A stretch of 28,824 bases of DNA from a virus: the IMG/VR virus record IMGVR_UViG_3300044620_001981, positions 1-28,824 of that record. One strand, written 5' to 3'. Under the pieces are notes generated by a model. That model saw only the letters and a list, made by a program, of their open reading frames with translations, was not told where the DNA came from and ran no database searches. The position numbers were made by a program, and so were the translations under genes. Positions 2,317-27,640 of this stretch are shown here, piece by piece (the first letter of the stretch is position 1; the number at the start of each line of letters is the position of its first letter).

Positions 2317-2466
2317 ATGATCATGACTCTTGAAGAAATCAACGCAAAACTGGACTTGCTTCTAGAAGAAATAGAAAACTGGAAACCTAAATCTGATTTA
2401 TTTCTGAAAGAAATAGAAACTTGGAAGCAACCCAATATTAAAGAAAAAGGAAAAGCCAATGTTTAA
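2317..2466 (+). CDS. small coiled-coil protein, 49 aa
   Basis: The likely start is ATG 2317 (AAGGG at 2301-2305), with ATG 2323 as an alternative. The product is a short amphipathic helix with a heptad-like run of Leu and Ile (LEEINAKLDLLLEEIENW) and a near repeat of the EIE-x-W motif 18 residues later. It ends in a basic tail. Its stop overlaps the ATG of the thymidylate synthase-like gene, so the two are probably translationally coupled. Function unknown; a small oligomerisation peptide is possible. Confidence 0.45.
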   Translation: MIMTLEEINAKLDLLLEEIENWKPKSDLFLKEIETWKQPNIKEKGKANV

Positions 2467-4057
2467 TGCAATCTACAAGCCCAATCAGTTGATTTTAGGC
2501 AGTGGCTATATTGCTATCTGTACAGGATGGACTCCTGCTAAGTCAGTAGCCGCAAAACTCGATCCCTCTGATTATGCCGTAATTGGTAATCTTTATAGCG
2601 CGTCAAGGGGAATTAACTTTTTAGTCCGTAATTTATTGGCCAATCCTCACGTTCGTTATCTTGTTGTAATGGATTTAACCCAAGAAGACAAAAATTCTGG
2701 TAGTGTTCAATGCTTGAAAGATTTCTTTGAGAATGGAGTTTATAGAGGGAAGAATTATGTAGGGAAAGAGTGCTGGGCAATTGATTCTTTAGTAAAAGGA
2801 TACATCGATTTAGATATTCCTTTAGAAGTTTTAAATCAATTACGATATTCTATGATTTTAATACCAAATCTTGAACGGGATATAGATATAAAATCAATAG
2901 TAGAAGTAGGAACCCTTGGTTCGTGGGCAGAACCGATGGTTTTTCCCTACAATGAACCTACATCAGAGGTAAAACCCGGGCCGCGCTATGGGCATCGGGT
3001 TGAGGGCAAAACTATTGCTGAAACTTGGATAAAAATATTGCAAAGAATCAAAACTATTGGCACTATCAGACCTACTGGGTATGATGGTAAATGGCAAGAG
3101 TTAATCGACTTAATGGCGATAGTTACCGATGAACCGAAAGACTTTTATTTTCCAGAACCTAACTATCTACCTTTAGACAGAGAGTATCTAAAGAACTATA
3201 TTCCACAAATACTTAATGATGCTGATTATCGAGAAGGGGTTAAATATACCTATGGTCAGCGATTACGCTCTTGGTTTGGTCAAGACCAGATTAAAGCAGT
3301 TATCAACAAATTGATTGAAGAAAATGACTCAGCTAGTGCCGTTATGTCTTTGTGGGATAGCGGAAGTGGAAACCCCCAAAGTCTTACCAGTGGATGTTAC
3401 AGCTTGGCTTTAAAAAGTCAGCTTTCCCGATCAAACGAGCTTTTTTTCGATTCTGACGGGTGGGAAATAGTACCAAATTCTATTGACCGAGGAGGCCGCT
3501 CGGTAGGCGATTCAGATCATAATCACAGCGGATCTCCCTGCCTCAATCATATCTGGGTAAGAGTAGTAGATAATGAACTCTCTTTAACAGCTACCTTTAG
3601 AAGTAATGATATGTTTTCCGCTTGGCCAGCTAATGCAATGGGATTACGGGCTTTACAGCGTCATATCAGAGATGAAATTGCTAGTGAATCTGAGTACGAT
3701 TTAACAATGGGTCCACTGATTACTATTAGTCAATCAGCCCATATTTACGATGATTGTTGGGAAAATGTAGAACAGCTAATTAATAATCAATATCAATTGA
3801 TTATTAACAAAGAGATTCAATCTTACAGTGATCCTGCTGGTAACTTCTTAGTAGAAACGGATGGAAACAATACCACAGTCAGTCAGCTAACCCCTAACGG
3901 TGAATTTGTGGGAAAATGGGAAGGTAAGAATCCTTTGAAGCTAATCCGTCAAATAATTGCCGATTGTCCCAGTATTCAACCTTTTCATATCGGCTACCTA
4001 GCTAGAGAAATTGAACGGGCATCTCAACTAAAAACAAATTACACTCAGGATAAATAA
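2459..4057 (+). CDS. thymidylate synthase-like protein with N-terminal MtrA/DUF4346-type domain
   Basis: 532 residues in two parts. Residues 10-95 resemble MtrA-like (DUF4346-type) domains: IAICTGWTPAKSV, then AVIGNLYSASRGINFLVRNL, ANPHVRYLVV and ENGV. Residues 172-440 resemble thymidylate synthase: GPRYGHRVEG (phosphate/fold motif), AVMSLWD, a catalytic-type Cys361 in GSPCLNHIW, the RSNDMFSAWPANAMGL motif (RSxD plus the Asn of the dUMP pocket), and QSAHIYDD with His and Tyr as in the nucleotide-binding end. The likely reaction is methylation or hydroxymethylation of dUMP or dCMP using a folate. Compared with the usual spacing between the LWD strand and the PC motif there are about 50 extra residues (302-355), which look like an in-frame insertion. 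A deoxycytidylate hydroxymethylase role cannot be excluded. It sits upstream of nrdA/nrdB in one operon. Confidence 0.8.
   Translation: MFNAIYKPNQLILGSGYIAICTGWTPAKSVAAKLDPSDYAVIGNLYSASRGINFLVRNLLANPHVRYLVVMDLTQEDKNSGSVQCLKDFFENGVYRGKNYVGKECWAIDSLVKGYIDLDIPLEVLNQLRYSMILIPNLERDIDIKSIVEVGTLGSWAEPMVFPYNEPTSEVKPGPRYGHRVEGKTIAETWIKILQRIKTIGTIRPTGYDGKWQELIDLMAIVTDEPKDFYFPEPNYLPLDREYLKNYIPQILNDADYREGVKYTYGQRLRSWFGQDQIKAVINKLIEENDSASAVMSLWDSGSGNPQSLTSGCYSLALKSQLSRSNELFFDSDGWEIVPNSIDRGGRSVGDSDHNHSGSPCLNHIWVRVVDNELSLTATFRSNDMFSAWPANAMGLRALQRHIRDEIASESEYDLTMGPLITISQSAHIYDDCWENVEQLINNQYQLIINKEIQSYSDPAGNFLVETDGNNTTVSQLTPNGEFVGKWEGKNPLKLIRQIIADCPSIQPFHIGYLAREIERASQLKTNYTQDK
4037..4057 (+). repeat. 21-bp direct repeat, copy 1
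   Basis: AATTACACTCAGGATAAATA at the 3' end of the thymidylate synthase-like gene recurs at 4470-4490 with one change (CAGG to CAAG). The two copies flank the gene at 4058-4456, as if that gene was inserted by, or is flanked by, a duplication. Confidence 0.8.
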
Positions 4058-12599: not shown

Positions 12600-13318
12600 T
12601 ACATATACTACAAATACTACAGAGCGGTTGTTAGGTTGTAGATAGATTGTTAATAAGGTTATCGACAATCGAAACCCTTGCTGAGTATAGGCTTTAGACT
12701 TTGTAGATATTGTCGATGCCTTATAGAGGAAAAGAGAGAAAAGAAGATATACAGCAAAGTCAGCAATAAAAGTGATTAAACGCAAAACTGACTCTATTGA
12801 CAAAATGCCGTATTTTCGGCTAATCAGAGAATTTTAAAAGCGAGAAGTGCTTTATCTCTAATTTGTTCTTTTTGTAATTCAATTGTTAATAAGGTTATCT
12901 ACAATCAAAACCCTTACCCCGACTAGGTTTTAGGCTTTGTAGATATTGTTGATGCTCTATAGAGAGAAAAAAGATAAAGAAAACAAACAAGGTCAACAAT
13001 AAGAAAACACCAGGCTCAACAGTAAAACAAAAAAATACACACGGGGTAATTATCAACAATATCTACAAAGAAGTAAAAAAAGGATGAAAGCTATATATAT
13101 CAATACTTTCATCTTTTCTATCTTTGTAAATACCCTTATTTACAATCTATTTACAAACTAACAATCTAATTAATCGAAGTCAGCAACAAGAACACAAAAA
13201 ATCCTGACACAGGAATAAGGCTAACAATATAAACAAAGTCTGAAATCTATATATATCAAGGGTTCCATTGTTAATAAGAGTATCTACAATCTATTAACAA
13301 TCTAACAACCAGCCAATT
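12600..13318. repeat. noncoding palindromic repeat field A
   Basis: No credible gene lies in this stretch. It carries six copies of ATCTACAA or its complement TTGTAGAT (12636, 12701, 12897, 12937, 13061, 13282), plus near variants (TATCGACAAT, TTTACAATC). Around 12653-12724, ATAAGG and ATCGACAAT pair with ATTGTCGAT and CCTTAT to close a long stem. A related unit follows at about 12885-12960. A GATGAAAG/CTTTCATC hairpin is at 13083-13113 with a TATATATATC motif in its loop. The same motif set recurs, inverted, at 27132-27640. Confidence 0.75.
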
Positions 13319-13381
13319 TCCGAGCATTAGACAACAAGCTCCGAACATTAGACAACAAGCTCCGAACATTAGACAACAAAA
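13319..13381 (+). repeat. three tandem 21-bp iteron-like repeats
   Basis: Three head-to-tail units contain CCGAACATTAGACAACAA (the first with G for the second A of CCGAA) at 13319-13339, 13340-13360 and 13361-13381; the last unit loses its two final bases of consensus. The 21-bp period equals two helical turns, as in iterons bound by replication or partition proteins. They lie beside the repeat field and next to a terminator. Confidence 0.75.
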
Positions 13382-13406
13382 AACCCCTGTAGTTTCTACA
13401 GGGGTT
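13382..13406 (-). terminator. terminator of the 13493-14017 gene
   Basis: AACCCCTGTAG and CTACAGGGGTT form a perfect 11-bp stem around a 3-base loop. Read leftward, it is followed by TTTTTT, which fits an intrinsic terminator for the leftward gene. Confidence 0.85.
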
Positions 13407-13492: not shown

Positions 13493-14017
13493 TTAATATC
13501 CCCCCATTAACTCGATTTGTTCCTCTAGAGTAGAGTTTTTGCTCTCAATCTCTTTGATTCGGTCTTTTAATCCGAGGATTTCATCGATATAGTCAACTTC
13601 TCGATAATCCAATTCGTCGATTTTGGCAGTTAATTTAGCGACTTGGCTCTCAAGTTGCTTGTTAGTCTCAATTGCCTCACTTTTGACCTGAAAACCGGCT
13701 AAGGTGTGAAGGAATAAGCGAACGCCCAACTGCATTACTTTTAGGGCTAGTTCGTGATTGTCTTTAATTAGCCACTGGCAGATTAAATTTTCTGGGATTA
13801 ATGCAACACCTTGTAACCCGCCTGCTGTCTCGATTTGAGCCTGTTCAAGACCCTTTTCACGCAAACCCCTCATAGTCAAACGGCGAGAAATAGTCGAAGG
13901 TATTTTCCCTGACATCCGGGCATATCCACTAATTGAGGCAAAGCTCTCACCGGTCTCGGTATTAATAATTAATTCAATACCATCGTGATCAAAACGCTGT
14001 AAACTAGAATTAGTCAT
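13493..14017 (-). CDS. uncharacterised cyanobacterial/phage regulatory-like protein (intact copy 1)
   Basis: 174 residues. Residues 1-25 (SLQRFDHDGIELIINTETGE) lead to SFASISGYARMSGKIPSTIS, which looks like a helix-turn-helix with a recognition helix around STISRR. Then follow AGGLQGVALIPENLICQWL and VMQLGVRLFLHTLAGFQV, and a C-terminal coiled coil (about 120-170). I recall this family only as hypothetical proteins of cyanobacteria and their phages, with a general likeness to phage antirepressor-type proteins. A damaged second copy lies at 25114-27131. Both have a short hairpin at the 5' end of the mRNA and a palindromic repeat field downstream. DNA binding is inferred. Confidence 0.7.
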   Translation of the reverse strand: MTNSSLQRFDHDGIELIINTETGESFASISGYARMSGKIPSTISRRLTMRGLREKGLEQAQIETAGGLQGVALIPENLICQWLIKDNHELALKVMQLGVRLFLHTLAGFQVKSEAIETNKQLESQVAKLTAKIDELDYREVDYIDEILGLKDRIKEIESKNSTLEEQIELMGGY

Positions 14018-18843: not shown

Positions 18844-21735
18844 CTAACCCCTAAAACCGCTCCTAAACCGATTAACAGGAGCAGAAGTAATAATCGTGCT
18901 AATAACCTTTTCATGTCCCTGAAACTCATTTTCAAGGGAATAAAATGCTCCCGATAGGCTATCTACAATGTCATTAGTCGGAGGTGTTTTCTTGCTACCA
19001 TCAAAACCCTGGCAGGCATTTAAGAACCGAGTGTTCCATGTCCCATCTCTTAAGATAAAGATTTGTCCCCGACTAGCTGCCGTGGCTACTGGTAAAGCTC
19101 GTGTTAGCTTATCCCCTTGAGGTGCTATCGCTCTAATATCATGATTCGGATGATTTTCTCTAATTACATTAGTAATGGTATTTTCAACAAATTTACCGCT
19201 CGATCCCCCTTCTTGTTCCCATCTTACAGCTACAGTTTTCCCATCCAATTCAGCAGTATTTTTAAGCATTAATTCCACTTCCCCGACCTTTTTCTGCTCA
19301 CAGATATTATCGGCAATCACATAAGCAAATTCCTTAATCTCAGTTGAATCTGGCAGTGTGTTTTTAATTCTTTGGTATTTATAGACAAGAGTGCCACTTG
19401 TATAACAATGATAGTTCTCAGCATTCTCTTTAGCAGTTGCCGCTAAATCCCAGAATCTTACTTTACCTATTAACTTCCAATCATCGGGTATTTTATCGAG
19501 AATCTCAAACCAAGTCCGATCAAATACCGTACCAGCTTCATATTTAACTTTCCAGTTACCCCTGAGAAGTCTTTCCCGCTCAATAGGATGTAAAGCGTAA
19601 AGGTTAGCCAAATAGGTAGGGTTAACCCTAATTAAAGCTGGATTATCAAAAATCGTAGCAGGAATAAAAGTAAAGCTTTTAATCAGATTATCTGGTGTAA
19701 TATTAATATCTGTATTTGATAAAAACTTTTCTCTTTTATCTTTAGGAATAAGGTCAAAAAGTTCATCTTTAAGACTAAATTTATCGATTAGTTCTTCTTT
19801 AGTATCAGCCCAGTGGATTATGTTTTCTCGTCTAATAAAATATTTAACTATTCCCCCTCTTTCTTCAATAGCATACCCAGTCTTAGGGTCGATCCACCAA
19901 GAGATAAAACTAGCTACCCAAGAGTCAGCGTCAGGGTTACAGGTTGCTCTAACTGCGGGTTTAATTCCTGATACCGAACGGTTTCTAGAGAGAAGATAGA
20001 AAAATTGTTCTTCTGTAAAATGGGTTAATTCATCAAAACCTATCCTTGCAATTTGTCCCCCTTGATAAACATAGACAGTTTTTTCGTATTGTAAATGTCT
20101 AAAAGATATTTTCGATCCAAATGGAAATCGCCACCCTGGAGGCTTTTCAATAAAATTACCTTTCACTGCTTGATAGATTTTTTGGCTTTCATCTATTAGT
20201 CCACCCGCTTGAGTAAATTCAGGATACGTCCGACGAAATATAACAGCCCGATAGTCAGGATTGCTAATAAATTCTTGCCGGGCAAAATCAATTAATAGCC
20301 CGGCACTATTATGCGTAACTATATAATCATCTGTTAAATAAAGATGATTTGGATTACTAACAGTAATACAACGAGCGTAATCAATTTCAGTTGGTTCAAT
20401 AGAAACAATTCTTTTACCCGGCCAACTTGATCCCCCATTAAATTGTCCAAGCATTTTCGCTCGTTCAACTTTACGCGGCAAACTAAAAAGTAATTCAAGG
20501 TGATTTCCCTCAACAGCCACGACGTAAGCTGTACGACCATCTAAATGCTCCCCCTTGTATCTATATTTTGGTTGTCTTTTCGTAATCTTAGCCATATAAC
20601 CCAAAGAACGAACCAAAGAAGCTACCTGAATAGCCAAATCTTTACTGGTTGTGCAATAGGAAACTTCTCTTTTTTTGTCTCCAACAGTTCCATCTGTATC
20701 AAAAAGGCCTTGAGCAAACGCATAACGAAAATCAAGAGATGCCGATAAATAGCCGTCGGGAAATACTTTTTCCCACGCTCTTTTTCCTTTATATTCATTG
20801 TTGCTTATCCAAGACTTAACCCATTGAACTTTTGTCGCGTTGACGGATAAAACTTCTAAACGGTTATCTTTTATTGGTGTTCGTGTTTTAACGGTAGCTT
20901 CTTTCCCTAAAATATCAACGAGTTTATCAGCAATAAATCTATCAGAAGTTGTTACGATAATTGAATCACTACAATAAGAACCATCGCCTATTAAACAACC
21001 GTAAAAATAGGCTCTGCCAGTATCAGACCTGTTAAGTGCCGTAAATTGCAATGGCGCGTTAACTGGAACAATAAACCGTCTTCCTTTGCTAATCTCAGTA
21101 ATCAACCAATTAGTATCCCTAACCCTTGCTCTTGTAATGTAATTAGTATTCCATCCTCTAGGTGTCAGATTCTCCTCAATTCGATTAATCCCGTTACTAG
21201 ACTTCCTGCGGCTATTACGGCGAGATTCCCAAAAAGACCATAAATGATCGCCACAGCATTCTGTACTTGTACTGTCTTCAAAAGAAACCCGATAAAATTG
21301 CTTGAATCCCTGTTCGTGAATTTGGATGATTTCTTGATACTGACCATCAGGATTCATAATCTTATCCCCGACTTTAAGATCAGAGAAGTCGATCCATTGA
21401 CCGCTCCATCCCAAGACCTTTGAATCTTTCATTTGTGATTCATTAAAACTACTATTATATGATAATAGTCTTTTCCCTAAAAGCGCATCCGCCATAGAAA
21501 GCATTTTATCTCCAATCGCTTTTCCTGTCTTGGATGCACGCCCTGCTTTTCCACTTCCTGCGCCTCCGCCATAGAAGATTACATCAGCGTCAATTTCCCC
21601 AAATAAAGCTTGTTTTCCCTCTTGTAATTGAGGAAAAACAATTTCTTCTTTGGTGTTAACAAGTCGATATTTTTCGGTCGCTGTTTTTATCTTTGAGAGA
21701 TTTTTTAATGATAATTTACTCGCTTTCATCGTCAT
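18844..21735 (-). CDS. terL: terminase large subunit with inserted intein
   Basis: 963 residues as encoded; about 550 after removal of a 413-residue intein. Exteins: Walker A is split, GGGAGSGK (residues 56-63) ending before the intein and S477 after it, restoring GGGAGSGKSAGLL. Walker B is IARIGFDELTHF (D-E), followed by RATCNPDADSW. The nuclease domain shows FWDLAATAK (Asp), VAVRWEQEGG (Glu) and NDIVDSLSGAF (Asp), the RNase H-like metal sites. The protein pumps DNA into capsids and cuts concatemers. The small-subunit-like gene upstream overlaps it by 20 bases. The function depends on the intein splicing out; otherwise the P-loop is broken. Confidence 0.93.
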   Translation of the reverse strand: MTMKASKLSLKNLSKIKTATEKYRLVNTKEEIVFPQLQEGKQALFGEIDADVIFYGGGAGSGKAGRASKTGKAIGDKMLSMADALLGKRLLSYNSSFNESQMKDSKVLGWSGQWIDFSDLKVGDKIMNPDGQYQEIIQIHEQGFKQFYRVSFEDSTSTECCGDHLWSFWESRRNSRRKSSNGINRIEENLTPRGWNTNYITRARVRDTNWLITEISKGRRFIVPVNAPLQFTALNRSDTGRAYFYGCLIGDGSYCSDSIIVTTSDRFIADKLVDILGKEATVKTRTPIKDNRLEVLSVNATKVQWVKSWISNNEYKGKRAWEKVFPDGYLSASLDFRYAFAQGLFDTDGTVGDKKREVSYCTTSKDLAIQVASLVRSLGYMAKITKRQPKYRYKGEHLDGRTAYVVAVEGNHLELLFSLPRKVERAKMLGQFNGGSSWPGKRIVSIEPTEIDYARCITVSNPNHLYLTDDYIVTHNSAGLLIDFARQEFISNPDYRAVIFRRTYPEFTQAGGLIDESQKIYQAVKGNFIEKPPGWRFPFGSKISFRHLQYEKTVYVYQGGQIARIGFDELTHFTEEQFFYLLSRNRSVSGIKPAVRATCNPDADSWVASFISWWIDPKTGYAIEERGGIVKYFIRRENIIHWADTKEELIDKFSLKDELFDLIPKDKREKFLSNTDINITPDNLIKSFTFIPATIFDNPALIRVNPTYLANLYALHPIERERLLRGNWKVKYEAGTVFDRTWFEILDKIPDDWKLIGKVRFWDLAATAKENAENYHCYTSGTLVYKYQRIKNTLPDSTEIKEFAYVIADNICEQKKVGEVELMLKNTAELDGKTVAVRWEQEGGSSGKFVENTITNVIRENHPNHDIRAIAPQGDKLTRALPVATAASRGQIFILRDGTWNTRFLNACQGFDGSKKTPPTNDIVDSLSGAFYSLENEFQGHEKVISTIITSAPVNRFRSGFRG
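20308..21546 (-). other. intein with LAGLIDADG endonuclease, class 3-like, inside TerL Walker A
   Basis: Residues 64-476 of the terminase. It begins AGRASKTGKAIGDK, not Cys or Ser, and ends DDYIVTHN followed by Ser477. Trp166 in CGDHLWSFW, Cys456 in ARCITVSN and Thr474 in VTHN form the W-C-T set that marks class 3 inteins, where the block-F cysteine is the nucleophile. The endonuclease has two DOD motifs, YGCLIGDGSY (248-255 region, Asp251) and GLFDTDG (343-349). So it is a mobile element that homes into the ATP-binding loop. Class assignment is by motif; splicing is inferred. Confidence 0.85.
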
Positions 21736-22480
21736 CGCTTATCCTAGTGGGAACCATTACATCATCATCAAATTCTGCACTATCACGAATAATCGAGGTC
21801 AGTCCGTCGTCGAGTTTCTCTATGCCAGAATGTCCTATAAGTTTTCCGTCAGGGTCAATAACAGCTAATCCGTGCTTTTGAACAATATTAATTGCGTACT
21901 CGATGGTGTCAAAACCTAAAACTTTTTCAAAGGTATCAGTCAACGTTTTAGCCATAGTCACTGCGTCTCTATGATTCCAATTTCCGTTAGGTTCAATTGT
22001 TATGGCAATCGGCCGGCCCGATTCATCTACAGAATCTATCCGACGGCGAGAAATCGGATAATTAGTCATCTGTTCAATCTTTTCGAGGTTTTTTAGAGTA
22101 ATCTTTAGAGTCTTCTCTCGGATTTCTCGTAAAATGCTATCAGTGTAAGCTTGCTGCTCTTGAATCTTTAAAAGCCAATAGGCTTTCGCCCGCTCTTCCC
22201 ATCGATAGTTTTTATGCGCTAACTGCCAGTCATCGGGGACAGTTTTAGCTCGTTTAAATTTAGTCTTCTCTATCTGTTCCCCAGAAGCTTCCCCGCAGTT
22301 ACCGTAGGCTCGATTTAAAGTGCGATAGCCTGAAGGAATAGGAAGGTAAAAAATCTGAAATCTTTCAAACCAGTCAGGGGTTTCTAGTTCTTGCCGTTCC
22401 CAGATAGGATATTTGGTAAACTCGATTACCTCTTCATGAATAGAGTATGTACGCTTTCTGCCTCGATTAGTGACAACCAT
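21716..22480 (-). CDS. terminase small-subunit-like protein, 254 aa
   Basis: It precedes terL on the same strand and overlaps it by 20 bases. Residues 31-60 give ELETPDWFERFQIFYLPIPS, then VPDDWQLAHKNYRWEERAKA and an aromatic YW, a pattern I associate with small-subunit-like terminase proteins of cyanophages (aromatic W...W..RA region). The middle has a helix with RREKTLKITLKNLEK-like charge, and the C-terminus is acidic (DDDVMVPTRISDDDESE). The N-terminus is basic (NRGRKRTYS). DNA recognition at the packaging start is the expected role. Recognition is from position and pattern, not a clear motif. Confidence 0.6.
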   Translation of the reverse strand: MVVTNRGRKRTYSIHEEVIEFTKYPIWERQELETPDWFERFQIFYLPIPSGYRTLNRAYGNCGEASGEQIEKTKFKRAKTVPDDWQLAHKNYRWEERAKAYWLLKIQEQQAYTDSILREIREKTLKITLKNLEKIEQMTNYPISRRRIDSVDESGRPIAITIEPNGNWNHRDAVTMAKTLTDTFEKVLGFDTIEYAINIVQKHGLAVIDPDGKLIGHSGIEKLDDGLTSIIRDSAEFDDDVMVPTRISDDDESE

Positions 22481-22521
22481 TGGTTATTATAGTAGTAGAG
22501 TTACTTAATCTTACATCAATC

Positions 22522-23226
22522 ATGACAGATAAATTAGAAATTGAGTATCGACGGCTTTGCGACCTAAAACAACTAAAGGGTAATTCCAAAAAACACGCCA
22601 CTGAAAACACAATAGCTTCAATATTGGATCTGGGATTTAAAGACCCAATTGGCTACGATCCGAGCTTAAACGGCGGAAAAGGGGGGATTACTGAGGGTCA
22701 TGATCGGTGTGCCGCACTATTAGCAATTAAAAAGCGCAAAATAGATCGACCTAGAGGTATAGATATTGACAACGATGGGGAGTGGATGGTTCCTATTTTA
22801 GTAGGAGTTCACGCTAAAAATGAGGCTCAAGCTATAAAATACTCGATTATTCACAACCATTCTACGATTCACGGGGCGGGGCTTGACCTTGCTACGGAAT
22901 TAAAGCTTTTTGATACTGACTTACTAATTAGCCAAGCTGAATACCTTGATGAAGAGGGGGAGAATTTAGGAGTAATCGGCGATTTAAATTCAATCCTAGA
23001 AGCTTTAAATACTTCAGATAATTTAGATAATTCTGATAATTTTGAATCGAATATAACAGATAATTTTTCGGGAAAAAACAAAGAAATTGACATTGAGGGT
23101 ATGGATGGGCAAATGATAATTAAATTAAGTTATACAGAAAATGAATACTGGCAAGTAAAAGAACAATTAAGTAAAATAGCATCGACACCCGAACAAGCAG
23201 TATGGAAGCTTTTAGGTAATGACTAA
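22522..23226 (+). CDS. ParB-like protein paired with a cytosine methyltransferase
   Basis: Start at ATG 22522 (TDKLEIEYRRLCDLK); an upstream GTG-like extension is unlikely. Residues 8-60 resemble a ParB nuclease-type domain: LCDLKQLKGNSKKHATENTI, DPIGYDP and the signature GHDRCAALLAIKKRK. Residues 95-118 (VPILVGVHAKNEAQAIKY) continue it. The last third is acidic, low complexity (NTSDNLDNSDNFESN) then a folded end. Its stop overlaps the methyltransferase start by 8 bases, so they are translationally coupled. Such ParB-like proteins often precede phage DNA methyltransferases; the exact role is unknown, perhaps directing or regulating the enzyme. Confidence 0.7.
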   Translation: MTDKLEIEYRRLCDLKQLKGNSKKHATENTIASILDLGFKDPIGYDPSLNGGKGGITEGHDRCAALLAIKKRKIDRPRGIDIDNDGEWMVPILVGVHAKNEAQAIKYSIIHNHSTIHGAGLDLATELKLFDTDLLISQAEYLDEEGENLGVIGDLNSILEALNTSDNLDNSDNFESNITDNFSGKNKEIDIEGMDGQMIIKLSYTENEYWQVKEQLSKIASTPEQAVWKLLGND

Positions 23227-26486: not shown

Positions 26487-27146
26487 AGAGGTTTTGGGGA
26501 TTGTCTATATGTTGGTCAGCATTCATCCCGTCGCTAAAAGCGAGGGACTTCTGCTGACATTTAATTAAACCGGCTACCTAAAGAAGATAGCAAGGGGGTA
26601 ACTTCTGAATCTCCAAATCACCCTCAAATTCAAACAGGGAGCGGGTTACAAGGGGGTAACACAATGGGGTTAGGATTAGGATTGCTAAAACAGGCTCAAA
26701 TTCAAACAGAGGGCGGGTTGCAAGGGGTTTATCTAATCCCAGAAGACCTAATCTGTAAGTGGTTGCCAAAGGATAATCCTGAGTTAGCCTCTCAAGTGCT
26801 TAAGCTAGGAGTCCGATTATTCCTTCACACATTAGCTGGTTTTCGCGTCAAGAGCGAGGCAATTAAAGAGGTAAGGCAACTTGAGAGCCAAATCGTCAAA
26901 CTAAGCGAAGAGAAGCAAATACTAGAGGAGTTGATCAAAACTCAAAAGACTATGATCGCTGACTTTAGCAGTAAAAACTCGATGCTTGACTATAAGCGGC
27001 TAGTGATCGAAGAATTACACGCTGAAAAAGAGCGCGATATAGCTAAATTCAACCTACTCGAAACCGAACGAGAAAAAGCACGGGGATGGCGAGGCGGTCG
27101 AATGCTCATGAGAAACGATAAAAAACGGTAAAAATACCTAAACCCA

Positions 27147-27181
27147 TATAAACCCCCTATGGACTCATAAGGGGTTTATAG
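27147..27181 (+). terminator. terminator-like hairpin after copy 2
   Basis: ATAAACCCCCTAT and ATAAGGGGTTTAT form an imperfect stem 16 bases after the stop of copy 2. No T-run follows. It corresponds in position to the perfect terminator after copy 1. Confidence 0.5.
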
Positions 27182-27640
27182 TTTGTTGGTTTGTAAATAG
27201 ATTGTAGATAAGGTGATCAACAATAAAAAGCATTGATATATATAGGTTCTAGACTTTGTTTATATTGTCACTCTATTTCCCTGTGTCAAGATTTTTTATC
27301 CTTCTCTTATTGTCCAGTTCGTTTATCTCTCCCTATTTTTTCTCTCCCCTGCATAAAGTGCCAACAAGATAAACAAACTTTGAAACCTATACCCTGCAAG
27401 GCTTTCGATTGTAGATAACCTTATCTACAATCGAATCACAATCCAACAGCCTTGCTGTTGACCTTGTTTGCTTTTTTACTCTACAATTTTTTATTGTCCA
27501 GTCTGGTTTATTCTTTTATCTTTTTCCTTTATAAGACATCGACATTATCTACAAAGTCTAGAACCTTTACAGGGTAACGGTTTCGGTTGTCGATCACCCT
27601 ATCTACAATCTATCTACAATGGTAACAGGTAAATATACTT
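27182..27640. repeat. noncoding palindromic repeat field B
   Basis: No gene is supported here. It carries six ATCTACAA/TTGTAGAT motifs (27202, 27409, 27423, 27547, 27601, 27612). A perfect 15-bp inverted repeat TTCGATTGTAGATAA/TTATCTACAATCGAA sits at 27404-27435. ATCGACA...TGTCGAT encloses a segment at about 27549-27595. The blocks match field A in opposite orientation, and both fields lie downstream of a copy of the same gene. Confidence 0.75.

What the first reader, a model, noticed from the sequence alone, without database searches (positions are those of the whole stretch)
13319..13381. Three 21-bp tandem repeats beside the palindromic field
Unit length of two helical turns and head-to-tail arrangement are as in iterons or partition sites. 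They lie at the end of a 700-bp AT-rich noncoding field. They are absent from field B, so they may mark the functional copy.
Basis: partly seen in the sequence, partly recalled or inferred. Interest (0 to 1): 0.5.

Follow-up and report, generated by a model that had tools for sequence, protein, structure and literature searches.

The report
Phage repeats matching host Schlafen-gene repeats
A virus, probably of bloom-forming cyanobacteria, carries a short DNA repeat whose core also forms repeat arrays inside the genes of bacterial Schlafen-type (probably anti-virus) proteins, so it is more likely a docking site or decoy for such a host protein than the virus's replication origin.

Summary
The repeats are real: three 21-bp units at 13319-13381, directly behind the terminator of the 174-aa gene. 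They do not mark an origin: the window and 41 relatives carry 0-7 copies (0 in 10 of 42), and field B lacks them in 21 of 21 testable relatives. A 12-bp core, CTCCGAACATTA, is conserved; the 9-bp spacer varies. The same core at the same period forms arrays inside Schlafen-type (SLFN_AlbA_2-HATPase-winged-helix) genes of cyanobacteria, Microcystis included, and recurs in unrelated viruses, non-coding or in other reading frames. In Schlafen genes the core follows the C-terminal winged helix rather than the rest of the gene (0 of 5000 permutations, 20 loci), and array plus helix were exchanged together between two proteins 89% identical upstream. Two further Schlafen core types occur non-coding in viral contigs; three others searched were not found. 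Best reading: an iteron-like binding array for a host Schlafen-type winged-helix protein, perhaps a decoy. Binding, reader and decoy function are untested.

The parts
13319..13381 (-). three 21-bp tandem units; core TAATGTTCGGAG on the minus strand (CTCCGAACATTA on the plus strand), 9-bp spacer
   Evidence: core/spacer conservation
13318..13329 (+). core 1, degenerate (TTCCGAGCATTA)
13339..13350 (+). core 2, exact CTCCGAACATTA
13360..13371 (+). core 3, exact CTCCGAACATTA
13382..13406 (-). intrinsic terminator of the 174-aa gene; its T-run leads straight into the array
   Evidence: same arrangement in relatives
13493..14017 (-). 174-aa phage gene upstream of the terminator (anchor gene for the relatives)
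   Evidence: no PHROG or NCBIfam match, one Pfam match below its cut-off
12626..13310 (.). field A: AT-rich non-coding field of inverted repeats next to the array
   Evidence: repeated elsewhere in related records
27181..27213 (+). start of field B, which lacks the array; 1 mismatch in 33 to the field-A junction of the 0-copy relatives

Best explanation
The array is a tandem, iteron-like protein-binding site. Its 12-bp core is the recognition element; the 21-bp period puts successive cores on one face of the helix. The most likely reader is a host protein, the C-terminal winged helix (wHTH2) of a Schlafen-type SLFN_AlbA_2-HATPase-wHTH protein, whose own gene carries the same array just before wHTH2. 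Proposed working: wHTH2 binds the array in its own gene (autoregulation or a resting tether), and the phage carries extra copies that titrate or tether this probably defensive protein. Shown: shared core and period, core conservation in non-coding phage DNA, occurrence in different frames and outside genes, co-inheritance of core and wHTH2.
For: (1) The unit of some relatives (TAATGTTCGGAGCTTGGTGGG, e.g. L012) equals the Microcystis Schlafen-gene unit over 21 of 21 bases. (2) In 62 phage units (22 distinct) the 12 core positions carry 1.60-2.00 bits, the 9 spacer positions 0.76-1.76. Units were picked by core match with up to 2 mismatches, which favours the core, but the picked copies follow each other at 21 or 22 bp without a gap, so no unit was skipped. 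(3) Frame independence: one virus protein (L156) has three copies 22 and 20 bp apart read APNIT, NSEHY, TPNIS; in 6 of 11 Schlafen loci with this core it is read SEHY and, 19 bp on, LRTLA; in L152-L155 no ORF covers it. (4) The exact two-core scan found 26 viral contigs, 8 outside this phage family; the reversed control pattern found 0. (5) Core tracks wHTH2: partial Mantel r 0.53 with the upstream protein held constant, 0 of 5000 permutations; core against upstream protein with wHTH2 held constant, r 0.08 (20 of 29 loci, a few near-identical). (6) L203/L210: upstream 89% identical, wHTH2 region 53%, coding end and flank alike again: cassette swap. (7) Non-coding CTCCGTACATAA arrays were seen in viral contigs L251, L253 and the related pair L254/L255 before a protein search found a Schlafen gene with that core (L267). 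Conversely the core of Schlafen gene L266 (CTCCCTACATAA) was then searched and found in one phage contig, L271: two exact cores 33 bp apart with a partial one between, covered by no ORF of 90 aa or more. (8) wHTH2 is modelled as a winged helix (mean pLDDT 79.7), best PDB match a Fic-family protein at E 9.6e-4. (9) Schlafen RNase + minimal histidine kinase + wHTH proteins are described as widespread BREX-linked modules, with Schlafen-linked systems able to act against phage (PMC12839542, passages); PADLOC models of Argonaute-type systems match the N-terminal part.
Against: No binding data. Array absent in 10 of 42 loci. Only 3 of 12 Microcystis genomes have the array. Of 15 array-bearing genomes (G453, G499, G520, G539) gave no Schlafen match at 1e-40; in G539 the array is near a contig edge, but the others may have another reader. 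Three Schlafen core types had no viral counterpart: ATCATTT and ATCGTTT types 0 contigs, GTGCATAA in none of the 7 contigs; the CACATTT type was not searched. No wHTH2 relative was seen in the virus records, so the phage would depend on the host protein. Core-wHTH2 coupling could reflect a peptide contact (SSEHY linker with wHTH2) rather than DNA binding. The winged-helix Pfam matches are below cut-off. The reversed-pattern control was run for one core only.
Confidence: 0.4

Rival explanations
1. Neutral capture: a host-derived tandem repeat was picked up by illegitimate recombination behind a terminator and expands and contracts by slippage without function.
For: Copy number 0-7, changing in 21- or 22-bp steps, with homogeneous spacers within several arrays; 0-copy relatives have a field-B-like junction.
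Against: The core stays nearly invariant while the spacer changes; unrelated viruses hold the core in different contexts and frames, reversed control 0.
Confidence: 0.27
2. Phage iterons: sites for a phage or plasmid-type initiator acting with field A in replication or copy control.
For: RepA plasmids carry iteron-like repeats just downstream of repA in the 4 records opened; two (Pseudomonas pGLE121P3, Achromobacter pLM16A1) have CCGTACATTACCCACC, 15 of 16 to CCGAACATTACCCACC of the Microcystis unit.
Against: Array absent in 10 of 42 loci; no RPA family in 12 array-bearing records; no profile similarity of wHTH2 and RepA; no clear skew switch in the window.
Confidence: 0.15
3. Terminator-linked element: a roadblock or RNA element acting with the terminator of the 174-aa gene.
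For: In the 32 array-bearing loci the array lies directly behind a T-run in the same orientation (read by eye); L154 has a hairpin next to its array; Pseudomonas phage Littlefix has GGGGGTTTTTT + ATTGTCTGATGTTCGG.
Against: The 10 zero-copy loci keep the terminator; other arrays lie inside coding DNA; no Rfam match there.
Confidence: 0.1

Closest known systems
Iteron-like repeats downstream of repA ('replication initiator protein A', RPA/PF10134) in plasmids
   Same: directly repeated ~16-bp core at about 21-22 bp period, 15 of 16 bases alike in the best case
   Different: no RPA gene in 12 array-bearing virus records; copy number 0-7; the core also lies inside Schlafen genes
Intragenic tandem repeat of Schlafen-type SLFN_AlbA_2-HATPase-wHTH genes
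   Same: same 12-bp core, same 21-bp period, identical unit in Microcystis
   Different: there it is translated (SSEHYxx linker); in the phage it is non-coding
Lambda origin inside gene O (iterons recalled; an abstract listed says the origin lies within gene O)
   Same: repeated sites inside the gene of the DNA-binding protein
   Different: here the gene is a Schlafen-type protein, and foreign elements carry the array without that gene
Small cyanobacterial repeats such as heptamer arrays or small dispersed repeats (recalled)
   Same: short, tandem, cyanobacterial
   Different: one locus per genome in the 6 genomes checked; core shared with two non-cyanobacterial records

Membership tests
RPA-plasmid iterons | tandem direct repeats resembling CCGnnCATTAC | tested here: met
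RPA-plasmid iterons | initiator gene of the RPA family in the same replicon | tested here: not met
   0 of 12 virus records; records may be fragments, and the window's own record was not among the 12
RPA-plasmid iterons | needed for replication, so present in all relatives | tested here: not met
   0 copies in 10 of 42 loci
Partition site (parS/parC) | ParA/ParB-type partner acting on it | not tested
   a ParB-like ORF is suspected by eye at 22480-23226, without family match
Schlafen-type array | 12-bp core at 21-bp period | tested here: met
Schlafen-type array | lies in frame before wHTH2 of an SLFN_AlbA_2-HATPase-wHTH gene | tested here: not met
   non-coding in the window; its units read S-S-E-H-stop in that frame; no wHTH2 homologue by tblastn in 8 virus records and the window
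Schlafen-type array | bound by the cognate wHTH2 | not testable with these tools
   needs a binding assay

The most novel reading that the evidence does not exclude
Schlafen-type defence genes carry, inside their own coding sequence, the DNA sites read by their own winged helix; array and helix move as one specificity cassette; and phages carry non-coding or out-of-frame copies of the matching array as operator mimics that capture or silence the sensor. The window's three repeats are one such mimic.
Probability: 0.28. Interest if true: 0.85.

Novelty: new variant of a known kind. Interest (0 to 1): 0.6.

Why it matters
If right, it gives a sequence-level handle on how Schlafen-type proteins with a winged helix choose their DNA, a specificity code (core against helix) that can be read from genomes, and a counter-defence made of bare DNA sites. 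Even if the phage array is passive, the in-gene array coupled to the winged helix is a testable feature of a family of likely defence proteins that I did not find described (listings, which show at most 20 papers each, open-access only; passages of one paper).

Tried and rejected
Known phages: blastn of field A plus the gene against 50,697 phage records, no match. The L049 array against phages found 5 Pseudomonas phage records: a single 26-bp match in Littlefix and 98PfluR60PP (two records each) and a coding APNI array in Touem01. Rfam: only a tRNA. RPA initiator: 0 of 12. RepA against wHTH2 by profile: no similarity. wHTH2-like protein in eight virus records and the window: nothing convincing. 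ATCATTT/ATCGTTT-type arrays in viral contigs: 0. Codon-agnostic SSEHY-array search in 386 cyanobacteria: 4 genomes, 13 matches, all with the same codons; tandem copies are not independent, so this counts as 4, two of them Microcystis. L267-type array against plasmids: no match; L267 gene against phages: 17 records with short matches covering about 1% of the query, taken as chance. Literature for the repeat strings: 33 papers, 20 listed, none relevant by title. Papers on Schlafen, Microcystis phage repeats and phage decoys: no description of in-gene arrays in the listings seen.

Dropped rows: of 67 relatives, 41 were used for copy number; 22 (L058-L079, 50-56% identical) were taken as the field-B paralogue, and L048, L080, L081, L083 were left out as truncated or diverged (L080 and L081 lie on contigs that do carry arrays). 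Of 29 Schlafen loci, L216 and L220 could not be anchored; of the other 27, 24 had a 21-bp array with a CTCC-type core, L269 had another 21-bp unit, L219 and L270 none; 7 (L198, L207, L215, L217, L219, L269, L270) were too short or lacked the core and were not in the test. A first run of that script failed with an error.

Full report
What is there. The window is a virus record of 28,824 bases. The three 21-bp repeats at 13319-13381 are confirmed. On the minus strand the order is: 174-aa gene (13493-14017), terminator hairpin (13382-13406), T-run, then TTGTC-TAATGTTCGGAG units, then the inverted-repeat field A. Field A elements recur at several places in the seven related 78-91 kb records searched, so the field is a dispersed repeat family.

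Variation in relatives. A search with the 174-aa protein gave 67 loci. In the 41 with the field-A type 3' end plus the window, copies number 0 (10), 1 (6), 2 (14), 3 (2), 4 (9), 7 (1); in 29 distinct regions 5, 5, 10, 2, 6, 1. The 0-copy junction is like the start of field B (1 mismatch in 33), which has no array in 21 testable field-B loci. So the array is a variable, optional feature of one place. In 62 units the core TAATGTTCGGAG is nearly invariant while the spacer takes several forms.

Where else the unit occurs. Two cores at 21-bp spacing were found in 19 stretches of the genome collection: 17 cyanobacterial, 2 from records titled Desulfuromonadaceae and Desulfurivibrionaceae. In 15 of the 19 the array runs in frame (EHY) into a winged-helix-like C-terminus. 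The gene was opened in L091 and L092: Schlafen AlbA_2 and HATPase_c_4 domains, with winged-helix matches below cut-off. The array is read SSEHYxx; in 6 of 11 such loci a further core 19 bp from an SEHY core is read LRTLA inside the winged helix. Three of 12 Microcystis genomes have the array, with the unit TAATGTTCGGAGCTTGGTGGG, identical to units of phage L012 and one spacer base from those of L057. With spacings of 13-43 bp, 26 viral contigs have two exact cores; 18 belong to this phage family, 8 do not; the reversed pattern gives 0. In the 8, the core is read APNIT (L110, L111), in two frames within one protein (L156: APNIT, NSEHY, TPNIS), or is covered by no ORF of 60 aa or more (L151-L155). 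In 243 genomes of the Microcystis order, 15 have arrays; in G499 and G520 they have spacings of 13-25 bp and are apparently non-coding, in G453 they are read APNIT/TPNIT.

The Schlafen arrays. A protein-based search, free of the DNA bias, found 23 of 243 genomes at 1e-40 and 5 of 297 in the phylum of the Desulfuromonadaceae genome at 1e-60, the query genome included. Of 27 analysable loci, 24 have a 21-bp array with a CTCC-type core, but cores differ: CTCCGAACATTAC, CTCCGATCATTTG/A, CTCCGATCGTTTG, CTCCGTGCATAAC/T, CTCCGAGCATAAG, CTCCGTACATAAG, CTCCCTACATAAG, CTCCGCACATTTG. L269 has another unit; L219 and L270 none. Core distance correlates with winged-helix distance after the upstream protein is allowed for (partial r 0.53, 0 of 5000 permutations; core against upstream protein given the helix 0.08; 20 loci, some near-identical). 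The clearest case is L203 and L210: 89% identical upstream, array and helix exchanged (53%), then a near-identical coding end and similar flank. L214 holds mixed units. The helix folds as a winged helix in the model (pLDDT 79.7), nearest solved chain a Fic-family protein (E 9.6e-4, TM 0.59); this is modest evidence.

A two-way check. Non-coding CTCCGTACATAA arrays in viral contigs (L251, L253, and the related L254/L255) were seen before a Schlafen gene with that very core was found (L267). The core CTCCCTACATAA was first seen in Schlafen gene L266 and then searched in viral contigs: one phage contig, L271, with two exact cores 33 bp apart and a partial one between. Against: the ATCATTT and ATCGTTT cores gave 0 contigs, GTGCATAA is in none of the 7 contigs, CACATTT was not searched. 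L250, one of those 7, is itself a Schlafen-like coding array; L252 has the core in a 90-aa open frame.

Plasmid iterons. The Microcystis array finds 39 plasmids; in the four opened the match lies just downstream of repA: CCGTACATTACCCACC, CCGTCGATTACCCACC. They are not annotated as iterons; that name is my reading. Array queries inflate BLAST scores, and the proteins show no profile similarity, so kinship is open; the site type is the same.

Host. The window's TnpB region matches 12 of 12 Microcystis genomes, the best near-full-length match at 87%, and the terminase's best known relative is of an Aphanizomenon phage (42%). A Microcystis-like host is likely, not shown.

Mechanism. Schlafen RNases with a minimal histidine kinase and winged helix are described as widespread in BREX-related loci, and Schlafen-linked systems as able to act against phage (PMC12839542, passages read, which cite a preprint on bacterial Schlafens that I have not seen). 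That our genes are of this kind rests on domain order. I therefore read the phage array as a docking site for such a host protein. Decoy, silencing tether and recruitment are not told apart by sequence; the alternative that the array is what the sensor detects is weakened because the sensor's own gene carries it, but not excluded.

Verdict. Observation confirmed; origin or partition role not supported; iteron-like binding array plausible; the unexpected link to Schlafen genes is the finding.

Noticed in passing
window 18844-21735: The large terminase ORF is 963 aa against 551 aa in relative G001; the extra part sits at the P-loop (GSGK/A) and ends in VTHNS, which looks like an intein with an endonuclease-like middle (intein features recalled).
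   Followed up: partly
window 13493-14017 and 26664-27131: Two paralogous genes with fields A and B lie in opposite orientation about 13 kb apart, flanking tRNA-Met, terminase, methylase and TnpB; in several 80-90 kb relatives both are found a similar distance apart.
   Followed up: partly
window 12626-13310 and 27184-27619: Fields contain palindromes such as TTGTAGATAACCTTATCTACAA and recur at further places in related records; function unknown, the sites faintly resemble DnaA boxes (recalled).
   Followed up: no
L176 / L190 (G520): In a cyanobacterial genome an insert of about 190 bp with inverted ends splits a non-coding CTCCGAACATTA array that is unsplit in G499.
   Followed up: no
L162, Pseudomonas phage Touem01: A large hypothetical protein has an APNI-frame array of a similar core at 21-bp period, in a phage of an unrelated host.
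   Followed up: partly
L161, Pseudomonas phage Littlefix: A terminator directly followed by ATTGTCTGATGTTCGG, the same arrangement as in the window, as a single copy.
   Followed up: no
window 2459-4057: Thymidylate-synthase-like protein with a C-terminal pterin-binding DUF4346 match, near ribonucleotide-reductase-like genes (named by eye).
   Followed up: no
L214: Mixed units (SSEYY, SSEHN, SSVHN) in one Schlafen gene suggest that arrays change core type unit by unit.
   Followed up: no
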